Below, piece after piece: positions 30,189-47,183 of a DNA stretch of 64,000 bases. Under the pieces are notes generated by a model that was not told the DNA's origin, searched no databases, and saw only the letters and a program-made list of their open reading frames with translations. This DNA is from Kushneria pakistanensis. GTDB taxonomy: Bacteria > Pseudomonadota > Gammaproteobacteria > Pseudomonadales > Halomonadaceae. The stretch covers positions 496,001 through 560,000 of the forward strand of contig NZ_BMZM01000003.1 of the NCBI RefSeq assembly GCF_014652795.1. Reading direction: 5' to 3'. How positions within the stretch are numbered: position 1 is the stretch's first letter; each line of letters starts with the position of its first letter. The position numbers and the translations under genes are program-made.

Positions 30189-31259
30189 ATGCCGCAGCTG
30201 ACCCAACACCAGTCCCAATCCTTCGCCTTTACCAGAGGCGGTGATCAGACATTTGTACTGACAGATAACATCGATACGCTGGAACTGAACGCCCAGTTCA
30301 ATGAAAGCCGTGCCCGATCCGGCGAGACGCTCTCGGCCAGCGCCCAGGGCGATGCGCTCGAGACGCTGATGCTCAGTGGCAACGGCCGCATCGAATGGGA
30401 CAACAGCGCCATCGATACCACGGCAGTGGCCTATACGGATGCCAGCGCGCTGGAAGGGGGGCTTGAGTACACGGCCTCGGCCGACGTGCAGGAAACCATT
30501 GTACTGGGGGGCAGTGGCAACGGTGCGGATGTGCTGTATTTCTCCGAAGACGCTTCCCGCTACGGCCAGGAGGGCGATGGCATCGACACGCTGGTTGGCT
30601 TTGATGGCATGCAGGACACGCTGTTTGTGGACGGTGAGATCATGGCCTCCTTTGAGACCATCAATTTTGATCATGCCGTGACGGCCTGGGATGCCGAGTC
30701 GCTTGAAGAAGCGTTCACCATGGCAGGGGAGATGGACAGCGGCGATGCCGTGATCCCCGTGTTTTTCAAGGAAGACTTCTATCTCTATCGCGATAGCGGC
30801 CCGGCCGGACTGGATGAAAATGATTTTGTCCTGCGTTTGAGCGACCTGGCCGGAGGGCCCAATACCTTTTCGGATCGTCGTGACATGATTTCCAAGATGG
30901 CACCGGCGCCCGAAGGACCCTTTACGGATGTGCTGGTAGAAGGGACGGTCAACGGTACTGAAAACACGCCCGACAGTTTTGTACTGGGCGACGATGATGC
31001 CTGGTGGGACAGTGTGATCACCGACTTTGAACTGGGGATTGATCGCATTGATGTGTCCGGGCTGACCGGCACGGATGGTGAGCCGCTCGGTTTCGACGAC
31101 ATCCGGCCGATGTTCCATGGCGACGGTACTGACCTGCTGATCGATGACGGGTCCGGATTCAATACGGTGACGCTGATCGGCGTGCCCAAGTACGATTCAG
31201 GCGCGCCGCTGGGGGAGCTGGCCTACGCCCTCAATGCAGAAGACTTTCTGTTTGCCTGA
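30189..31259 (+). CDS. RTX-like acidic protein, probable type I secretion substrate
   Basis: A 356-residue acidic protein with no cysteine and no N-terminal signal peptide. Segments such as GGSGNGADVLYF, DGIDTLVGFDGMQDTLFVDG and WWDSVITDFELGIDRIDVSGLTG resemble the beta-roll/serralysin C-terminal type, but perfect GGxGxDxUx nonapeptides are missing. It ends in LAYALNAEDFLFA, the kind of short hydrophobic end seen on type I secreted proteins. A CAAAGGAG ribosome site supports ATG 30189. No ABC exporter, membrane-fusion or TolC gene is adjacent. Function and export are inferred. Confidence 0.65.
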   Translation: MPQLTQHQSQSFAFTRGGDQTFVLTDNIDTLELNAQFNESRARSGETLSASAQGDALETLMLSGNGRIEWDNSAIDTTAVAYTDASALEGGLEYTASADVQETIVLGGSGNGADVLYFSEDASRYGQEGDGIDTLVGFDGMQDTLFVDGEIMASFETINFDHAVTAWDAESLEEAFTMAGEMDSGDAVIPVFFKEDFYLYRDSGPAGLDENDFVLRLSDLAGGPNTFSDRRDMISKMAPAPEGPFTDVLVEGTVNGTENTPDSFVLGDDDAWWDSVITDFELGIDRIDVSGLTGTDGEPLGFDDIRPMFHGDGTDLLIDDGSGFNTVTLIGVPKYDSGAPLGELAYALNAEDFLFA

Positions 31260-31532: not shown

Positions 31533-33500
31533 TTATTGATCCCCTCTATGCTTGCGAAAAAGCTCCCTTAAGCGCTGATACTGGGGGGTTCTCTCAAGTT
31601 CCGGCGAACTCTGTATGATATTGTTCAAACAATGCCCTAGCTCACGATGTACCCATGGCTGCTCGGTGATTATGGCATCCATAAGAGTCAAGGCTTCTGC
31701 TGGGAAGCGTGAATCCAGCTCTGATGTATGCAGTAAATGTATAACGGTATGTGGGTGTTCGAGCGGTTGTATCCAGTTCTTTATCATGGCTAATGCGGCT
31801 GGAAACTCAGCTCTGGCTGCAATTGCTGCTCTAATCAATGATGCAGAAATTCGTTGTGTAGCAAAATCTCTCGATTTTGGCCAAATGTGTTGCCAAAATG
31901 GTTGAACACGATTTTTCCAATAATTTTCCCGCTGATCGCCGGCGCTCTCAAGTGCTTGCGATAAAGCTTGTGCACAAGCTTCTAACCCCTCTTGAGGCAA
32001 GTCTTCAATCGCTGTACGGAATTCTTGTGAGGTATACCCCTCTATAGGGCCAAGTGCAGCATAAGTTAGAAACGCAGCGTAACGTTGAAGGTTTCCCCCT
32101 AACTCAGCATGATGTTTCGCAGTTGCAAGAAACTGTGATTTTAAAGAAAGCAATAAAGGCTGGTACAAACGAGGTGACCAAAGGAAACCTTCCCACATTG
32201 CTTTTGCCTCTTTAGAGTTTTCCCAATCGAAAAAAGGCAACAGGCATTCCTTACTCCATTCGCGATCAACACGAAAAAGAGCAATTAACCTTGATCCTAA
32301 AAGTACGCGCCCATGCCTAAATTCTTTTTCTTTAATATTGCTGATTTGCGTGAAAAAGGACCTTGTTTGTGGAGGAAGTAAATCGTTGTCTTTTGGTTTT
32401 TCTTTTGTCCAAAGATTTATTACAGCTTCAGTGACATGTCCAATAGGATGGTTGATAGCCTCGTTAATAGATTGTGAAGACTCCCTGCTGGTTTCATTTA
32501 TGTTGCCATTTTTGCCGGAAAATAGAATCGTAATTCTTTTGCAAAGTTTGAAAAGAATATCTTCATCTTTTTTTATTGATTCAGATACCTTTCGAAGCCA
32601 ATAAGTAACGCTATGGGCTATCTCTTTTAAGATTTCATCAGGAATATTTTTTATGAACGGGGTGGCATATTGCCAAGATTTTAGTGCTAGGCGTTCCTCG
32701 CTCCAAGATTGGAATGCCTCGCGCCAACGATTAATAGGCCAGATGTTCTCTTCCGCTAAATCGCCTAGCGCATAAAGGCTATTAAGAAGATGTTTCTGAC
32801 AAACATAACGCCAAGTATCTTCGGAAAATGGTGAGTTGGAAGATGGCTTTTGTAGCCAATGAAAAAGCTCGCTACGCTTTTTAGGGGCTATGTCAATTTC
32901 ACGATTGTCTTCAAAGTCTGGATCGCCGGTACCACTCATCCAGCTAGAAAACTCATCCCTTTCACTATCCGATAATTGAAAGTCCGAATAAATATCGGAA
33001 ATTTCTTTAAGTTTGACTGCTGCGGCTCCTCCTATGCTAATACCCGAGGCATCGAGTTTGGCGAGACGAAGCCAGATAGATCGAGCTACTAAGTGTTGAA
33101 AAATATCTGGTTCTATATCTTTACGATACTTTTCGCTAGGTGGGCCAGCTACTATAGCGTCTTCCAGACGTTTTTGAAGATCTCCTCTTAATTTTGAACC
33201 TTGCAAAACGATAACTCGGCACATCTCTCTCATGGTCTCTAACGACCATAAGCACTGAGCATTATCAGCAAGCAGCCATTCCACCCATTTCTCGGGTTGA
33301 ATGTAATTACTCTTGCTGGCCGCAAATAGAGCTAAGCGTTTAAAGGAGGGATATGGCAAATCGAACCAACTTTGGGCTATCCGTGCTGCACGCATATGGT
33401 CGTTTTCATTAATTACAAGCCATGCTTCTCGCAATAATTCGATTAGGTTGACCCATTCACTGAAACCACGGTTTTGCCAATGTGGTTCGATAGATGGCAA
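31533..33500 (-). CDS. C-terminal segment of broken SIR2 gene
   Basis: 655 codons, predicted all-helical, rich in Trp, Leu and Glu, with no catalytic motif recognised. It begins at a TTG with no ribosome site, 15 codons after the TGA and in the same frame as the upstream segments. In SIR2 defence proteins the long helical C-terminus is where phage proteins are sensed and activity is controlled; that role is inferred here. Ends in RLRELFRKHRGDQ. Confidence 0.5.
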   Translation of the reverse strand: MPSIEPHWQNRGFSEWVNLIELLREAWLVINENDHMRAARIAQSWFDLPYPSFKRLALFAASKSNYIQPEKWVEWLLADNAQCLWSLETMREMCRVIVLQGSKLRGDLQKRLEDAIVAGPPSEKYRKDIEPDIFQHLVARSIWLRLAKLDASGISIGGAAAVKLKEISDIYSDFQLSDSERDEFSSWMSGTGDPDFEDNREIDIAPKKRSELFHWLQKPSSNSPFSEDTWRYVCQKHLLNSLYALGDLAEENIWPINRWREAFQSWSEERLALKSWQYATPFIKNIPDEILKEIAHSVTYWLRKVSESIKKDEDILFKLCKRITILFSGKNGNINETSRESSQSINEAINHPIGHVTEAVINLWTKEKPKDNDLLPPQTRSFFTQISNIKEKEFRHGRVLLGSRLIALFRVDREWSKECLLPFFDWENSKEAKAMWEGFLWSPRLYQPLLLSLKSQFLATAKHHAELGGNLQRYAAFLTYAALGPIEGYTSQEFRTAIEDLPQEGLEACAQALSQALESAGDQRENYWKNRVQPFWQHIWPKSRDFATQRISASLIRAAIAARAEFPAALAMIKNWIQPLEHPHTVIHLLHTSELDSRFPAEALTLMDAIITEQPWVHRELGHCLNNIIQSSPELERTPQYQRLRELFRKHRGDQ

Positions 33501-33545
33501 ATCTATATAAGATAGATCATGATAATCATCGGCTTTTCCGAGCTC

Positions 33546-34433
33546 TCATGCCAAGTCCAGAGCATCACGTAATAGCTGCTGAAAATCCTCTATAAGCAGC
33601 GGCAAAGCTGAAACCCAATGACCCCCAGTTAGGTCTCGTATAGCTGAGTGTATATAATCTGCAGCTAGAGTTAACTCCCACTCTATTAATTGGCGCGAAC
33701 TATTTGAAGTGCTTTCATTTTCTTCTGATTGGTAGGGATAATAAGTTCTTTTTAAAGCTATTCTTGGAGCAAGAAGATCTCGCAGCTCAAGTCGTAAAGT
33801 GGTGTTTAGTCCTTCTTTTTTTAATCGCTCTTCCCATCTGTATAGATCTAAATGAAGGTGAGGGTTTTTTAAACGCCCACTTAAGGTTATACGCCACAAA
33901 GTGCGCATAAATTCATCTGGAACCGCATTTGGTGCCTGAGAGCTGATACTTTGCAGCTCAGAAATTTTGTTCTCCTGTTGAAGAGTGGAAAGACGATCTA
34001 GTTCTGACTCGATCAAAAAAGACCATGTGTCATGTACTTTCCCGCCACGTTGAGCAATCCAAAGAATTAATCTTGGATCGTTCAAGTGACGTGTAAGCCA
34101 ACGGGATATATGAAACATTACGTTATCCCATTTATTGTGGTCGATGCTCTCACAATTCAAAGACATAAACTGTGCATGGTCGTAATGAGTTGGTCGACGA
34201 ACTAAGCTAAATCTTAATTTGTGGTTGACTGTATTATATGAGGGCACTCCAAAGCGTGGAAGGTCACTGTGCTGAAAGCGTTCTTCTGAAAAAGATTCTA
34301 ATAACCAATCAAGCGATGGTGTTGGCTCGAAGTCAGCAAAACGCTTGGCAGGCAAGCCTGACTTGTCTGATAAAGCCCATAATAAACGGCCTACGAAATT
34401 ATCTTGTTGTGTGCTCGCAGAAGGTTTCGCCAA
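33546..34433 (-). CDS. Middle segment of broken SIR2 gene
   Basis: 295 codons open between the two internal stops, with no recognised domain. It would have to start at a TTG with no ribosome site, seven codons after the SIR2 stop and in the same frame. Probably not a separate gene but the interior of the disrupted Dsr1-like coding region. Low GC and Trp/Leu/Arg-rich helical sequence (LLWALSDKSGLPAKRFADF). Confidence 0.5.
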   Translation of the reverse strand: MAKPSASTQQDNFVGRLLWALSDKSGLPAKRFADFEPTPSLDWLLESFSEERFQHSDLPRFGVPSYNTVNHKLRFSLVRRPTHYDHAQFMSLNCESIDHNKWDNVMFHISRWLTRHLNDPRLILWIAQRGGKVHDTWSFLIESELDRLSTLQQENKISELQSISSQAPNAVPDEFMRTLWRITLSGRLKNPHLHLDLYRWEERLKKEGLNTTLRLELRDLLAPRIALKRTYYPYQSEENESTSNSSRQLIEWELTLAADYIHSAIRDLTGGHWVSALPLLIEDFQQLLRDALDLA

Positions 34434-34454
34434 AGCATGACTGACGACAATTTT

Positions 34455-35360
34455 TTATTTACCAATTACGCCATCGCGATGAGTATCTGCCCAAGCAATT
34501 AAAGTCTGATGGAGACCAGAATGATCTTGGGTGCCATTAGGCACATTATAAAAGATTGGTGTTACACCTTTAGCCTCCCATTCGAGGGCCTCACGCTTTT
34601 CTTGGCCAGATTTGCAAGCCCCCAGTGCCCAAGCCTGAGGCGTAATTTCTCCTAGCATTCGATCTGCTGCTAGTGCATCCATCATATAGCGCAATACTGG
34701 ATCGTTGATGCTGTACCCTACGAAGCAAACTATATAATTGCGGAATAACTCACTTAAGAAGCGGGCAGCCCATCTCTCGATGAGATAAGCTAGACCGAAA
34801 TCTCCGCTAGTAACGACAAGACGATTTAGCGCCGTATCGTCTGTTTTATGGGGTAGTAGACCATGCAAGTAAACTAACCCATCCCAGCGGCTGTTTTTCG
34901 GGATTGGCAACATTGGAGCAGCATAGAATTGGAATGTCTGCCCAGTACGTTTTGCCGCCGCATGAAATACACGGTCAAAGTTAGTAGTGACCATTCTTAG
35001 CGCGCCTTCCCGATTACGAGCTAGCTTTAATAGTGCAGCATGTGTATCGGTAGCACCCTTACGACGTAATTTTGGCTTTAGCGCATCTGCGAGAGCATGG
35101 CGAACAGTTAATCGTTGTCCAGGTAGTCGACGTTCTAGCAAATCGAGCGCAGCGTCATATTGAAAGTTAGCTAGAACATTGCTCTCGATTTCTGACGGTA
35201 CCGTTCCATTTAATTTATAGATTTTTTCTACTAGTCCTCCAAAACCCGGCAAACCGGCAGGGTAAGAAATACCTGCGCCGCAGAAAAATACTACGCGACC
35301 TTCCTCGTGAGCCTGAAGAAGTTCATCTGGGATGTCAGGTCCATTAGGTATGAATTGCAT
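34455..35360 (-). CDS. SIR2-domain protein (N-terminal segment)
   Basis: 301 residues with a complete SIR2-like NAD-binding domain: FFCGAGISYPAGLPGF (GAGIS at 28-32), TTNFD with Asn127, the YLHG His166, and GYSINDPVLRYMMD. SIR2 domains in bacterial defence proteins hydrolyse NAD+ upon phage sensing. If the TAA at 34455 is honoured, this segment could still be made as a stand-alone SIR2 protein lacking its sensor/regulatory region. The ATG at 35360 is the only good start of the locus. Confidence 0.7.
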   Translation of the reverse strand: MQFIPNGPDIPDELLQAHEEGRVVFFCGAGISYPAGLPGFGGLVEKIYKLNGTVPSEIESNVLANFQYDAALDLLERRLPGQRLTVRHALADALKPKLRRKGATDTHAALLKLARNREGALRMVTTNFDRVFHAAAKRTGQTFQFYAAPMLPIPKNSRWDGLVYLHGLLPHKTDDTALNRLVVTSGDFGLAYLIERWAARFLSELFRNYIVCFVGYSINDPVLRYMMDALAADRMLGEITPQAWALGACKSGQEKREALEWEAKGVTPIFYNVPNGTQDHSGLHQTLIAWADTHRDGVIGK

Positions 35361-44635: not shown

Positions 44636-44662
44636 ACGCCCGGCCCTGTGCCGGGCGTTTTT
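44636..44662 (+). terminator. Rho-independent terminator of cysDN
   Basis: Stem ACGCCCGG / CCGGGCGT with a seven-base loop and five T. Confidence 0.9.
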
Positions 44663-44893
44663 ATGCCTGCCCTTGATGACACGCTGGTTTTTCTGGCGGT
44701 TTTCCCTGCACCCCTTTGAACACCATCGCCCTGAAGATAGGCCGATCATGGCTGCATCAAACCGTCATGTCCTTTCAATTGGTTGCATTACTTTACCCGG
44801 TTTGACCGTTCTGACATCCGGGCGACATCTCTTAAGCCAATAATCAGGAATCGGGGCAAGGGGCCCTGTTCGGATCAGCGAGGAAAACAAGAG

Positions 44894-47125
44894 ATGGCAC
44901 TCAACATATTGTTGACCAACGACGATGGCTACGAGGCACCCGGCATTCATTCACTGCATGAGGCCTTGAGCGCTGCCGGCCATAACGTCACGGTCGCCGC
45001 CCCCAGGGTCAACCAGAGCGCGCAGGGCAGTTCACTGGGCGGTGAGGAAGCGCTGTCATCCGATATTGAAGTGGCGCAGTACGATGACGCCGGCAATTAC
45101 TGGATCGATGGACGCCCTGTCGTGGCAGTGGATACCGCTCTGGACGCGTTGTTCGCCGACCGGGAGTTTGATCTGGTTATCTCGGGTACCAACAAGGGCG
45201 AGAACATTGGCACCAGCGAGAACATCTCCGGCACCGTCAATGGTGCCATGGCCGGCCTGAAGCACGGCCTTCCGGCGATCGCCGTATCGGCTGCCGCTGA
45301 TGAGGCCGGTGATGAAGGGTTCGTCAACGCAGCGGCCTACACCGTTGATCTGCTGCAGCGCCTTGAAGACCAGCAGCAGGCAGGACAGCCGCTGCTGCCG
45401 GAAGGCACCGGGCTCTCCGTCAATGTGCCGGAAGGCGATATCAACGGCGCCGTACTCACCGAGATTACCCGCAAGTCGAGCACCGAATTTCCCATTACCG
45501 AGAACGAAGACGGCACTTACGGCTCCCGGGCCATTGATCAGCAGAGCTCGGGCGGACTGTTCAATGAAGGCGATCAGTTTCTGGACGGTAACATTACCGT
45601 TTCCGCCATCGATGGCAATTGGGGCGCCAATGAAGCGGCGCGCAGTGCGCTGGAGGCCCGGCTGGAGACACTGCTTGCCGATGGCGTGGCGCCTGCCGGT
45701 GATCATGCGCCGCTCAATATCATGCTGGTCAACGATGGCGGTTATGAGGCGCAGGGGCTGACCACTACGCGCGAAGCACTGCTGGAGGCGGGTTACGACG
45801 TGACAGTGGTGGCGCCCACCGAGAGTCAGCAGGCGACCGGCAGTGCGCTGACGCTGGGCGGGTTTGAGGTGACCGAGTACGACGGTGGCTATCACGTGGA
45901 CGCCACGCCCAGTACCACGGTCTACACCGGGCTGGATGCGCTGTTGCTGGGCGCCAATCAGCCTGACCTGATCGTCTCCGGCGTTGATGACGGCGCCGGT
46001 GTGGGGTTGCAGGCCAGCAGCTCCGGCACGCTGGGGGCGGCCGTGGCCTCGGTGTTCAATTACGACATTCCGGCGATTGCCCTCTCGGCGGGCACCGATG
46101 ACAGCGGCGAGGTGCCGGACGGCCTGTATGAGACCAGTGCCGACTTTCTGGTGGAAGTGATCGGCGGCCTGCAGGCCACCCAGGCGGGCAATGGCAGCCA
46201 GTTGTTGCCAGAAGGCGAAGGGCTCAGCATCAATGTGCCGCTTGATGCCGATACGACTGATTTTGCCTTCACTCTGCCGGACGCAGCCAATGACGGTCAG
46301 CGTCACATCGTGGCTGACGGCGAGGGCGGTTATCACTATCAAATCGACGCGCCGGTCAATACCGATAATGAGTGGTCGGAAGGCACCCATTACAACCAGG
46401 GCGAGATCACCCTCACGCCCATTGATGGCAGCTATCAGGCCAGCGATGCGATCACGCTGGAAGTGGGCGATCTGCTGGGGATGGCGTATGGCCGGGTCAA
46501 TGACTGGTCAGCCGAGTCAGACGATGCTGACGTCATGCCGATGCCCGGCCATGAGGTGCCAGGCCATGAAGAGGACAGCGGCCTGTCGCTGATCGGCGGG
46601 CTCGAGGAGCTTTTTCAGGACGTCACTGCCGGCATCGGTCAGCTCGTGGCGCAGCTGGATGCGCAGACATCAAGCGGCTTCCACTCCCAGCACACCAGCC
46701 TTGAATGGAGCTCGGGACCTCAACACCATGCCATCAGCTTCAACGATGAGCAGTATCACCGCGACGCCATGAGTGAAGCCTTCTCCAGTCAGAGCGCGGA
46801 CTATAGCGCCGGCACCTTCGGGCACATGTTCGAGCAGAGCGGCTTTTCCGCCGTGCGTGACGCCTTTGGCCGAACGGACGGTCAGCAGTCGCATGATGTC
46901 TGGCACAGCGAGGTTTCCCCGTTCAGCAGTGGCGCCGCTCAGGCGTCTTTCCTGCAGGATGACATGCTGGCCGCATTCACGGGCGGTGACGATGCGATGT
47001 TTGATATACAGGCCGATATGACGGTGACGGCTGACATGACCAATGGCATTGATAGCCAGCCGATGACGGCCATGCTGACCGGCCTGAATGATCAGGCGCC
47101 GCCCATGGAATTTTTCGCTGTCTGA
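44894..47125 (+). CDS. Tandem SurE-domain protein with long acidic C-terminal tail
   Basis: 743 residues, no Cys, no signal peptide. Domain 1 (~1-265) is a SurE 5'/3'-nucleotidase fold with all metal ligands: NDDG (Asp10, Asp11), Ser42 and SGTNKGENIG (Asn100), plus SGTVNGAMAG. Domain 2 (~272-530) repeats the fold, but NDD is NDG (Gly282), the Ser position is Gln313 and the Asn position is Asp365 in SGVDDGAGVG, so it is probably inactive. Residues ~540-743 are a His/Asp/Ser-rich tail with no recognised domain, ending PPMEFFAV. Housekeeping SurE is a single ~250-residue domain encoded near pcm/rpoS. ATG 44894 follows GAGGAAAA. Possibly exported by type I secretion; function unknown. Confidence 0.85.
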   Translation: MALNILLTNDDGYEAPGIHSLHEALSAAGHNVTVAAPRVNQSAQGSSLGGEEALSSDIEVAQYDDAGNYWIDGRPVVAVDTALDALFADREFDLVISGTNKGENIGTSENISGTVNGAMAGLKHGLPAIAVSAAADEAGDEGFVNAAAYTVDLLQRLEDQQQAGQPLLPEGTGLSVNVPEGDINGAVLTEITRKSSTEFPITENEDGTYGSRAIDQQSSGGLFNEGDQFLDGNITVSAIDGNWGANEAARSALEARLETLLADGVAPAGDHAPLNIMLVNDGGYEAQGLTTTREALLEAGYDVTVVAPTESQQATGSALTLGGFEVTEYDGGYHVDATPSTTVYTGLDALLLGANQPDLIVSGVDDGAGVGLQASSSGTLGAAVASVFNYDIPAIALSAGTDDSGEVPDGLYETSADFLVEVIGGLQATQAGNGSQLLPEGEGLSINVPLDADTTDFAFTLPDAANDGQRHIVADGEGGYHYQIDAPVNTDNEWSEGTHYNQGEITLTPIDGSYQASDAITLEVGDLLGMAYGRVNDWSAESDDADVMPMPGHEVPGHEEDSGLSLIGGLEELFQDVTAGIGQLVAQLDAQTSSGFHSQHTSLEWSSGPQHHAISFNDEQYHRDAMSEAFSSQSADYSAGTFGHMFEQSGFSAVRDAFGRTDGQQSHDVWHSEVSPFSSGAAQASFLQDDMLAAFTGGDDAMFDIQADMTVTADMTNGIDSQPMTAMLTGLNDQAPPMEFFAV

Positions 47126-47150: not shown

Positions 47151-47183
47151 AAAACGCCTCGCAGAAGTTGCGAGGCGTTTTTT
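47151..47183 (+). terminator. Rho-independent terminator
   Basis: Stem AAAACGCCTCGCA / TGCGAGGCGTTTT with a five-base loop and six T, 25 bp after the tandem SurE gene. Confidence 0.93.

What the first reader, a model, noticed from the sequence alone, without database searches (positions are those of the whole stretch)
44894..47125. Tandem SurE protein: active first domain, stripped second domain, novel acidic tail
SurE is normally one ~250-residue domain. Here two copies are fused. Domain 1 keeps all four metal ligands (Asp10, Asp11, Ser42, Asn100), while domain 2 has Gly282, Gln313 and Asp365 at three of those positions, so it looks like a pseudoenzyme. About 200 residues of unknown, Cys-free, His/Asp/Ser-rich sequence follow, ending PPMEFFAV. 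The gene is monocistronic with a strong terminator. This could be a secreted or surface nucleotidase that scavenges phosphate or nucleotides, with domain 2 as a scaffold or ligand sensor. The residues are seen; secretion and role are inference.
Basis: partly seen in the sequence, partly recalled or inferred. Interest (0 to 1): 0.75.

Follow-up and report, generated by a model that had tools for sequence, protein, structure and literature searches.

The report
Tandem SurE nucleotidase built for export
Two fused copies of a normally intracellular nucleotidase, one of them with its metal site lost, form a cysteine-free, extremely acidic protein that looks like an exported member of a phosphate-scavenging enzyme set in a salt-loving bacterium.

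Summary
Window 44894-47125 encodes 743 residues: two SurE domains and a ~198-residue tail of no known family. Domain 1 has all four metal ligands; domain 2 has Gly282, Gln313 and Asp365. In 31 aligned SurE domains only the two Kushneria second domains deviate. The third tandem protein found, from another genus, has an intact domain 2 and RTX repeats in its tail. So the pairing of domains came first, the second site was lost later, and domain 2 stayed under purifying selection.
Export has indirect support. The protein is Cys-free with charge about -99. The same genome has a PrtD-type type I secretion operon beside PhoA-like and ExeM-type genes, behind its only perfect Pho box. In the other genus the tandem gene itself lies near a phytase-like gene, PhoA and ExeM.
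Best reading: a type I-exported nucleotidase, folded as a one-chain pseudo-dimer, in an extracellular phosphate-scavenging set. Export, activity and phosphate control of this gene are not shown; its own upstream region has no significant Pho box. The tandem was found in 3 of 275 family genomes.

The parts
44894..47125 (+). tandem SurE gene, 743 aa, Cys-free, net charge about -99
44894..45697 (+). SurE domain 1 (residues 1-268), all four metal ligands present
   Evidence: Pfam stretch 5-195; ligand table; model
44921..44926 (+). Asp10-Asp11 codons (metal ligands, domain 1)
45017..45019 (+). Ser42 codon (metal ligand, domain 1)
45191..45193 (+). Asn100 codon (metal ligand, domain 1)
45713..46528 (+). 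SurE domain 2 (residues 274-545), three of four ligands changed
45737..45739 (+). Gly282 codon in place of the second Asp
45830..45832 (+). Gln313 codon in place of Ser
45986..45988 (+). Asp365 codon in place of Asn
46529..47122 (+). C-terminal tail (residues 546-743), predicted disordered; proposed type I secretion tail
   Evidence: RTX repeats in the matching part of the relative L004
47108..47122 (+). terminal EFFAV: acidic residue followed by hydrophobic residues, the recalled end motif of PrtD-class substrates
   Evidence: the motif itself is recalled
47151..47181 (+). terminator hairpin
44636..44658 (+). terminator-like hairpin after cysN
44811..44828 (+). weak Pho-box-like site (10 of 14 positions), not significant

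Best explanation
The gene encodes an extracellular SurE-type 5'/3'-nucleotidase. The chain leaves the cell through the PrtD-type type I secretion system of the same genome, guided by its unstructured C-terminal tail. Outside, the two SurE domains pair within one chain into the arrangement that ordinary SurE reaches by dimerising. Domain 1 is the active half and removes phosphate from nucleotides; domain 2, which has lost its metal site in Kushneria, is kept as the structural partner that shapes the active site across the interface. It works with an exported nuclease (ExeM type) and an exported alkaline phosphatase (PhoA type) to take phosphate from extracellular nucleic acids. Shown: sequence, domains, ligand loss, predicted fold, selection on domain 2, neighbours, the Pho-box sequence before the secretion operon. 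Inferred: export, activity, pairing, phosphate control and the shared role.
For: Domain 1 ligands are intact. Both domains group with eight single SurEs of exported type (judged by eye from their starts), 100/100, apart from the housekeeping SurEs, one of which this genome has separately. All three tandem proteins are Cys-free with 2.1-2.4% Lys+Arg and charge -98 to -103; the exported-type singles have 5.8% on average and 2 of 8 are Cys-free, the other singles 8.9% and 0 of 39. The relative L004 has RTX repeats. G000 has PrtD, HlyD and TolC-like genes followed by PhoA-like and ExeM-type genes, 93 kb from this gene. In G046 the tandem gene, a phytase-like gene, PhoA and ExeM lie together. The only perfect match to the recalled Pho box in the genome precedes the PrtD operon; it is perfect also in G050 and G036. 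Domain 2 dN/dS 0.109, domain 1 0.057, cysN 0.080. In the full model 16 of 27 SurE entries align from domain 1 to the end of domain 2, while the unswapped 1l5x aligns within domain 1; in Salmonella SurE the active site is near the dimer interface and hinge mutants of the swapped helix lose activity (PMC3567009, passages). Acidic cargo suits ABC export (PMC9223453, passages).
Against: No RTX repeat in the Kushneria tails, and the window tail is only 19% identical to the RTX-bearing one. The gene is 93 kb from the secretion operon. Its own best Pho-like site is matched by 34 of 200 shuffles. In G046 neither the tandem gene nor either PrtD copy has a significant box. Two of four PrtD-bearing Kushneria genomes lack the tandem, so co-occurrence within the genus is weak. 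The domain pairing rests on a model with pTM 0.44 and no interface score, and 11 of 27 SurE entries do not reach the end of domain 2. High acidity is also common in halophile exoproteins whatever their route (recalled).
Confidence: 0.6

Rival explanations
1. Domain 2 is not a structural partner but a nucleotide- or phosphate-binding module that has swapped catalysis for ligand capture or allosteric control.
For: Domain 2 is conserved at dN/dS 0.109 and keeps the SurE core and the SGT motif.
Against: The same conservation is expected of a dimer partner; the intact domain 2 of L004 suggests two active halves before the loss. I did not look at binding residues beyond the metal ligands.
Confidence: 0.15
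2. The tandem is exported for another use: polyphosphate breakdown or control of extracellular nucleotide signals, not phosphate supply from nucleic acids.
For: E. coli SurE also acts on short polyphosphate (PMC8475336, passages).
Against: Neighbours in G046 are nuclease, phosphatase and phytase-like genes, and the G000 secretion operon has a perfect Pho-box match.
Confidence: 0.15
3. The tandem works inside the cell or in the periplasm, as a second SurE.
For: The sequence starts directly with the SurE fold, and a review lists the SurE family as intracellular (PMC8475336, passages).
Against: Charge -99, no Cys, disordered tail with a type I-like end, RTX repeats in the relative; no Sec-like start by eye.
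Confidence: 0.1

Closest known systems
Canonical SurE 5'/3'-nucleotidase (PF01975, TIGR00087)
   Same: fold and, in domain 1, all four metal ligands
   Different: two domains in one chain, second site lost, extra tail, extreme acidity; a review and a 2026 paper list SurE as intracellular (PMC8475336; PMC13318637; passages)
Exported-type single-domain SurE of related gammaproteobacteria (L033-L040)
   Same: nearest relatives of both domains, tree support 100/100
   Different: one domain, Sec-like starts by eye, 6 of 8 with Cys, charge -4 to -25
Substrates of PrtD-type type I secretion systems
   Same: no Sec-like start, Cys-free, acidic, C-terminal tail; relative L004 has RTX repeats
   Different: no RTX repeats in the Kushneria tails; export untested
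Phosphate-starvation proteins of Pseudomonas, where a HlyD protein and an ABC transporter are listed as phosphate-responsive in strain BIRD-1 (PMC5082522, passages)
   Same: phosphatases and a nuclease outside the cell, secretion genes that respond to phosphate
   Different: the nucleotidase named there is UshA, not SurE

Membership tests
SurE (PF01975) | sequence match above the curated cut-off | tested here: met
   257.5 bits against 22.1, two stretches
SurE (PF01975) | DD, Ser, Asn metal ligands, domain 1 | tested here: met
SurE (PF01975) | DD, Ser, Asn metal ligands, domain 2 | tested here: not met
   Asp281 kept; Gly282, Gln313, Asp365; domain 2 is SurE by fold, not a likely active SurE
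SurE (PF01975) | SurE fold in domain 2 | tested here: met
   predicted model, Z 29.1, 225 aligned, rmsd 2.2 to 3ty2_A
SurE (PF01975) | metal-dependent nucleotidase activity | not testable with these tools
   -
type I secretion substrate | RTX nonapeptide repeats | tested here: not met
   no GGxGxD in either Kushneria protein; two in L004, Pfam RTX match in it. Not all type I substrates have them (recalled)
type I secretion substrate | C-terminal acidic-then-hydrophobic end | tested here: met
   EFFAV; 3 of 47 window ORFs match the pattern used, one of them cysD by its GYF end, so the test is weak
type I secretion substrate | cognate exporter in the genome | tested here: inconclusive
   a PrtD-type ATPase above cut-off is present at C3:447877; that it is the cognate one is untested
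type I secretion substrate | transporter-dependent export | not testable with these tools
   -
Pho regulon | Pho box before this gene | tested here: inconclusive
   10 of 14 positions, 34 of 200 shuffles as good

The most novel reading that the evidence does not exclude
SurE, known as an intracellular dimer, was made exportable by fusing the dimer into one chain, so that the unfolded polypeptide can pass a type I system and refold alone outside; once fused, one of the two active sites became dispensable and was lost. This would be a general route by which obligate homodimers become type I cargo.
Probability: 0.35. Interest if true: 0.65.

Novelty: new variant of a known kind. Interest (0 to 1): 0.55.

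Why it matters
I found no description of an exported tandem SurE in the listings of searches or in the passages seen. The family also offers a natural before-and-after pair (intact and lost second site) for studying how a fused homodimer becomes an enzyme plus pseudoenzyme, and it links a type I secretion system to phosphate scavenging in halophiles.

Tried and rejected
Shifted ligands in domain 2: rejected, motifs align without gaps. Neutral decay of domain 2: rejected, dN/dS 0.109. Pho box before the tandem gene: not significant in any of three genomes. Tail relatives among 275 genomes: besides G000 and G050 only one hit, E 0.006 in G882, taken as chance; G046's own tail was not found this way. 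Tandem on plasmids: 0 of 129 matching records cover 80% of the query. Viral contigs: 10 loci, matched within residues 1-180. Wider searches with the three-row profile: order 9 of 293, phylum 4 of 398, class 3 of 369 genomes matched at the thresholds set (1e-30, 1e-30, 1e-33); apart from G000 the matches are single domains by extent and frame length; the samples overlap and are a small part of each group. Fold rows other than SurE reach at most Z 7.5 among the 50 entries shown. Rows left out: 25 of 47 single SurEs entered the tree and ligand table, mainly to thin near-copies. Paper searches were used for leads only.

Full report
What is there. The gene at 44894-47125 codes for 743 residues. Pfam SurE matches in two stretches, and the 15 solved sequences matched are SurE proteins. 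Both domains are predicted as SurE folds: domain 1 mostly with high confidence within the full model, domain 2 best when folded alone (pTM 0.81; Z 29.1, 225 residues, rmsd 2.2 to 3ty2_A). Residues from 534 on are nearly all under pLDDT 50. The gene stands between a terminator-like hairpin after cysN and its own strong hairpin.

The second metal site. In an alignment of six domains from three tandem proteins and 25 single SurEs, 29 of 31 rows carry Asp-Asp, Ser and Asn; the two exceptions are domain 2 of the window protein and of its Kushneria indalinina counterpart. That these four are the metal ligands is recalled and partly in papers seen. The third tandem protein, L004 from genome G046 of another genus in the family, keeps all four in both domains. 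So the pair of domains is older than the loss. Between the two Kushneria species dN/dS is 0.057 for residues 1-199, 0.113 for 200-268, 0.109 for 272-460, 0.160 for 461-545, 0.23 for the tail, and 0.080 for 425 codons of the neighbour cysN (my own Nei-Gojobori script). Against L004 it is 0.21 for 1-199 and 0.26 for 272-460. Domain 2 is therefore kept, if somewhat less strictly than domain 1.

Origin and spread. The tree places the two domains as sisters (93/94, below the starred level) inside a group with eight exported-type single SurEs (100/100), away from the housekeeping SurEs; long branches meet there and the root is a midpoint, so the sister relation is tentative. In the four other Kushneria genomes examined, of eight held without the tandem (G036, G097, G061, G015), cysN and the porin gene lie next to each other without the tandem gene, so it was cleanly gained or lost.

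Signs of export. The three tandem proteins have no Cys, 2.1-2.4% Lys+Arg and a charge near -100. At the Cys rate of the other 46 window ORFs, none in 743 residues has a chance of 0.00029; but 7 of 32 window ORFs of 250 aa or more are Cys-free, so low Lys+Arg (under 5% in this one and the ORF at 30189 only) is the sharper mark. Seven other proteins of the proposed set are Cys-free with 2.3-4.8% Lys+Arg. The L004 tail holds RTX repeats. The Kushneria tails do not, but end in EFFAV and EFFMG. Work on an ABC exporter shows that cationic stretches block export, and says that natural substrates tend to be negative (PMC9223453, passages).

The system around it. A PrtD-type ATPase above the curated cut-off is in 7 of 13 genomes tested: G000, G050, G036, G090 and the three of genus g8. 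In G000 it is followed by HlyD and TolC-like genes (the latter just under its cut-off), a PhoA-like phosphatase with no Sec-like start by eye and, on the other strand, an ExeM/NucH-type nuclease. In G046 the tandem gene, a phytase-like gene, a PhoA and an ExeM nuclease form one cluster. The recalled Pho box occurs once without mismatch in the genome, before the PrtD operon (51 sites with up to 2 mismatches against 15 for the reversed control). It is also perfect in G050 and G036, with differing spacers; the other five PrtD operons (G090, two of G046, G007, G031) have no significant match. The stretch shared by the phytase-like and PhoA genes of G046 has an 11-of-14 site, reached by 5 of 200 shuffles. 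Phosphate-responsive secretion genes are listed for Pseudomonas putida BIRD-1 (PMC5082522, passages). The tandem gene itself has only a weak, non-significant site.

How it may work. In Salmonella SurE the active site lies near the dimer interface, and mutants of the swapped-helix hinge lose activity (PMC3567009, passages). In the tandem model 16 of 27 SurE entries align from residue 1-3 to 522-541 (rmsd 2.9-7.4), which I read as domain 1's core plus the last helix of domain 2; 4 end at 444-467 and 7 at 244-265, among them the unswapped Pyrobaculum SurE but also swapped or mutant ones. That is what a dimer-like pairing within the chain would give, but only range ends are reported and the model's pTM is 0.44. 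I take domain 2 as the fixed partner of an active domain 1.

What is known. A review and a 2026 paper place SurE among intracellular enzymes (PMC8475336; PMC13318637; passages only). Full-text searches for SurE with type I secretion, with extracellular nucleotidase, and with RTX or exoproteome showed no title or abstract start on an exported SurE (15 of 93, 15 of 127 and 10 of 10 papers listed; 'sure' is a common word, so these are weak searches). Kushneria includes a phosphate-solubilising isolate (PMC3118493, title and abstract start), which is suggestive and no more.

Noticed in passing
window 30189-31259: 356-aa Cys-free protein with 3.9% Lys+Arg and the end AEDFLFA; a similar-looking protein ending EEFLFA lies beside the second PrtD operon of G046 (L062:11892-12947). 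Neither has a family match. Probably another type I substrate.
   Followed up: partly
L059:14691-16364 and L060:12626-14323: PhoA-like alkaline phosphatases without Cys and without a Sec-like start, next to a type I operon or a nuclease gene; E. coli PhoA has disulphides (recalled).
   Followed up: partly
L003 tail, residues 669-686: three VSPFS-like repeats in the K. indalinina tail, one in the window tail; PF motifs also near the N-termini of several PhoA, ExeM and phytase-like proteins. Not tested against chance.
   Followed up: no
window 31533-35360: A SIR2-like ORF at 34455-35360 (recalled from its sequence) followed by two ORFs of unknown family on the same strand, possibly a defence locus.
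   Followed up: no
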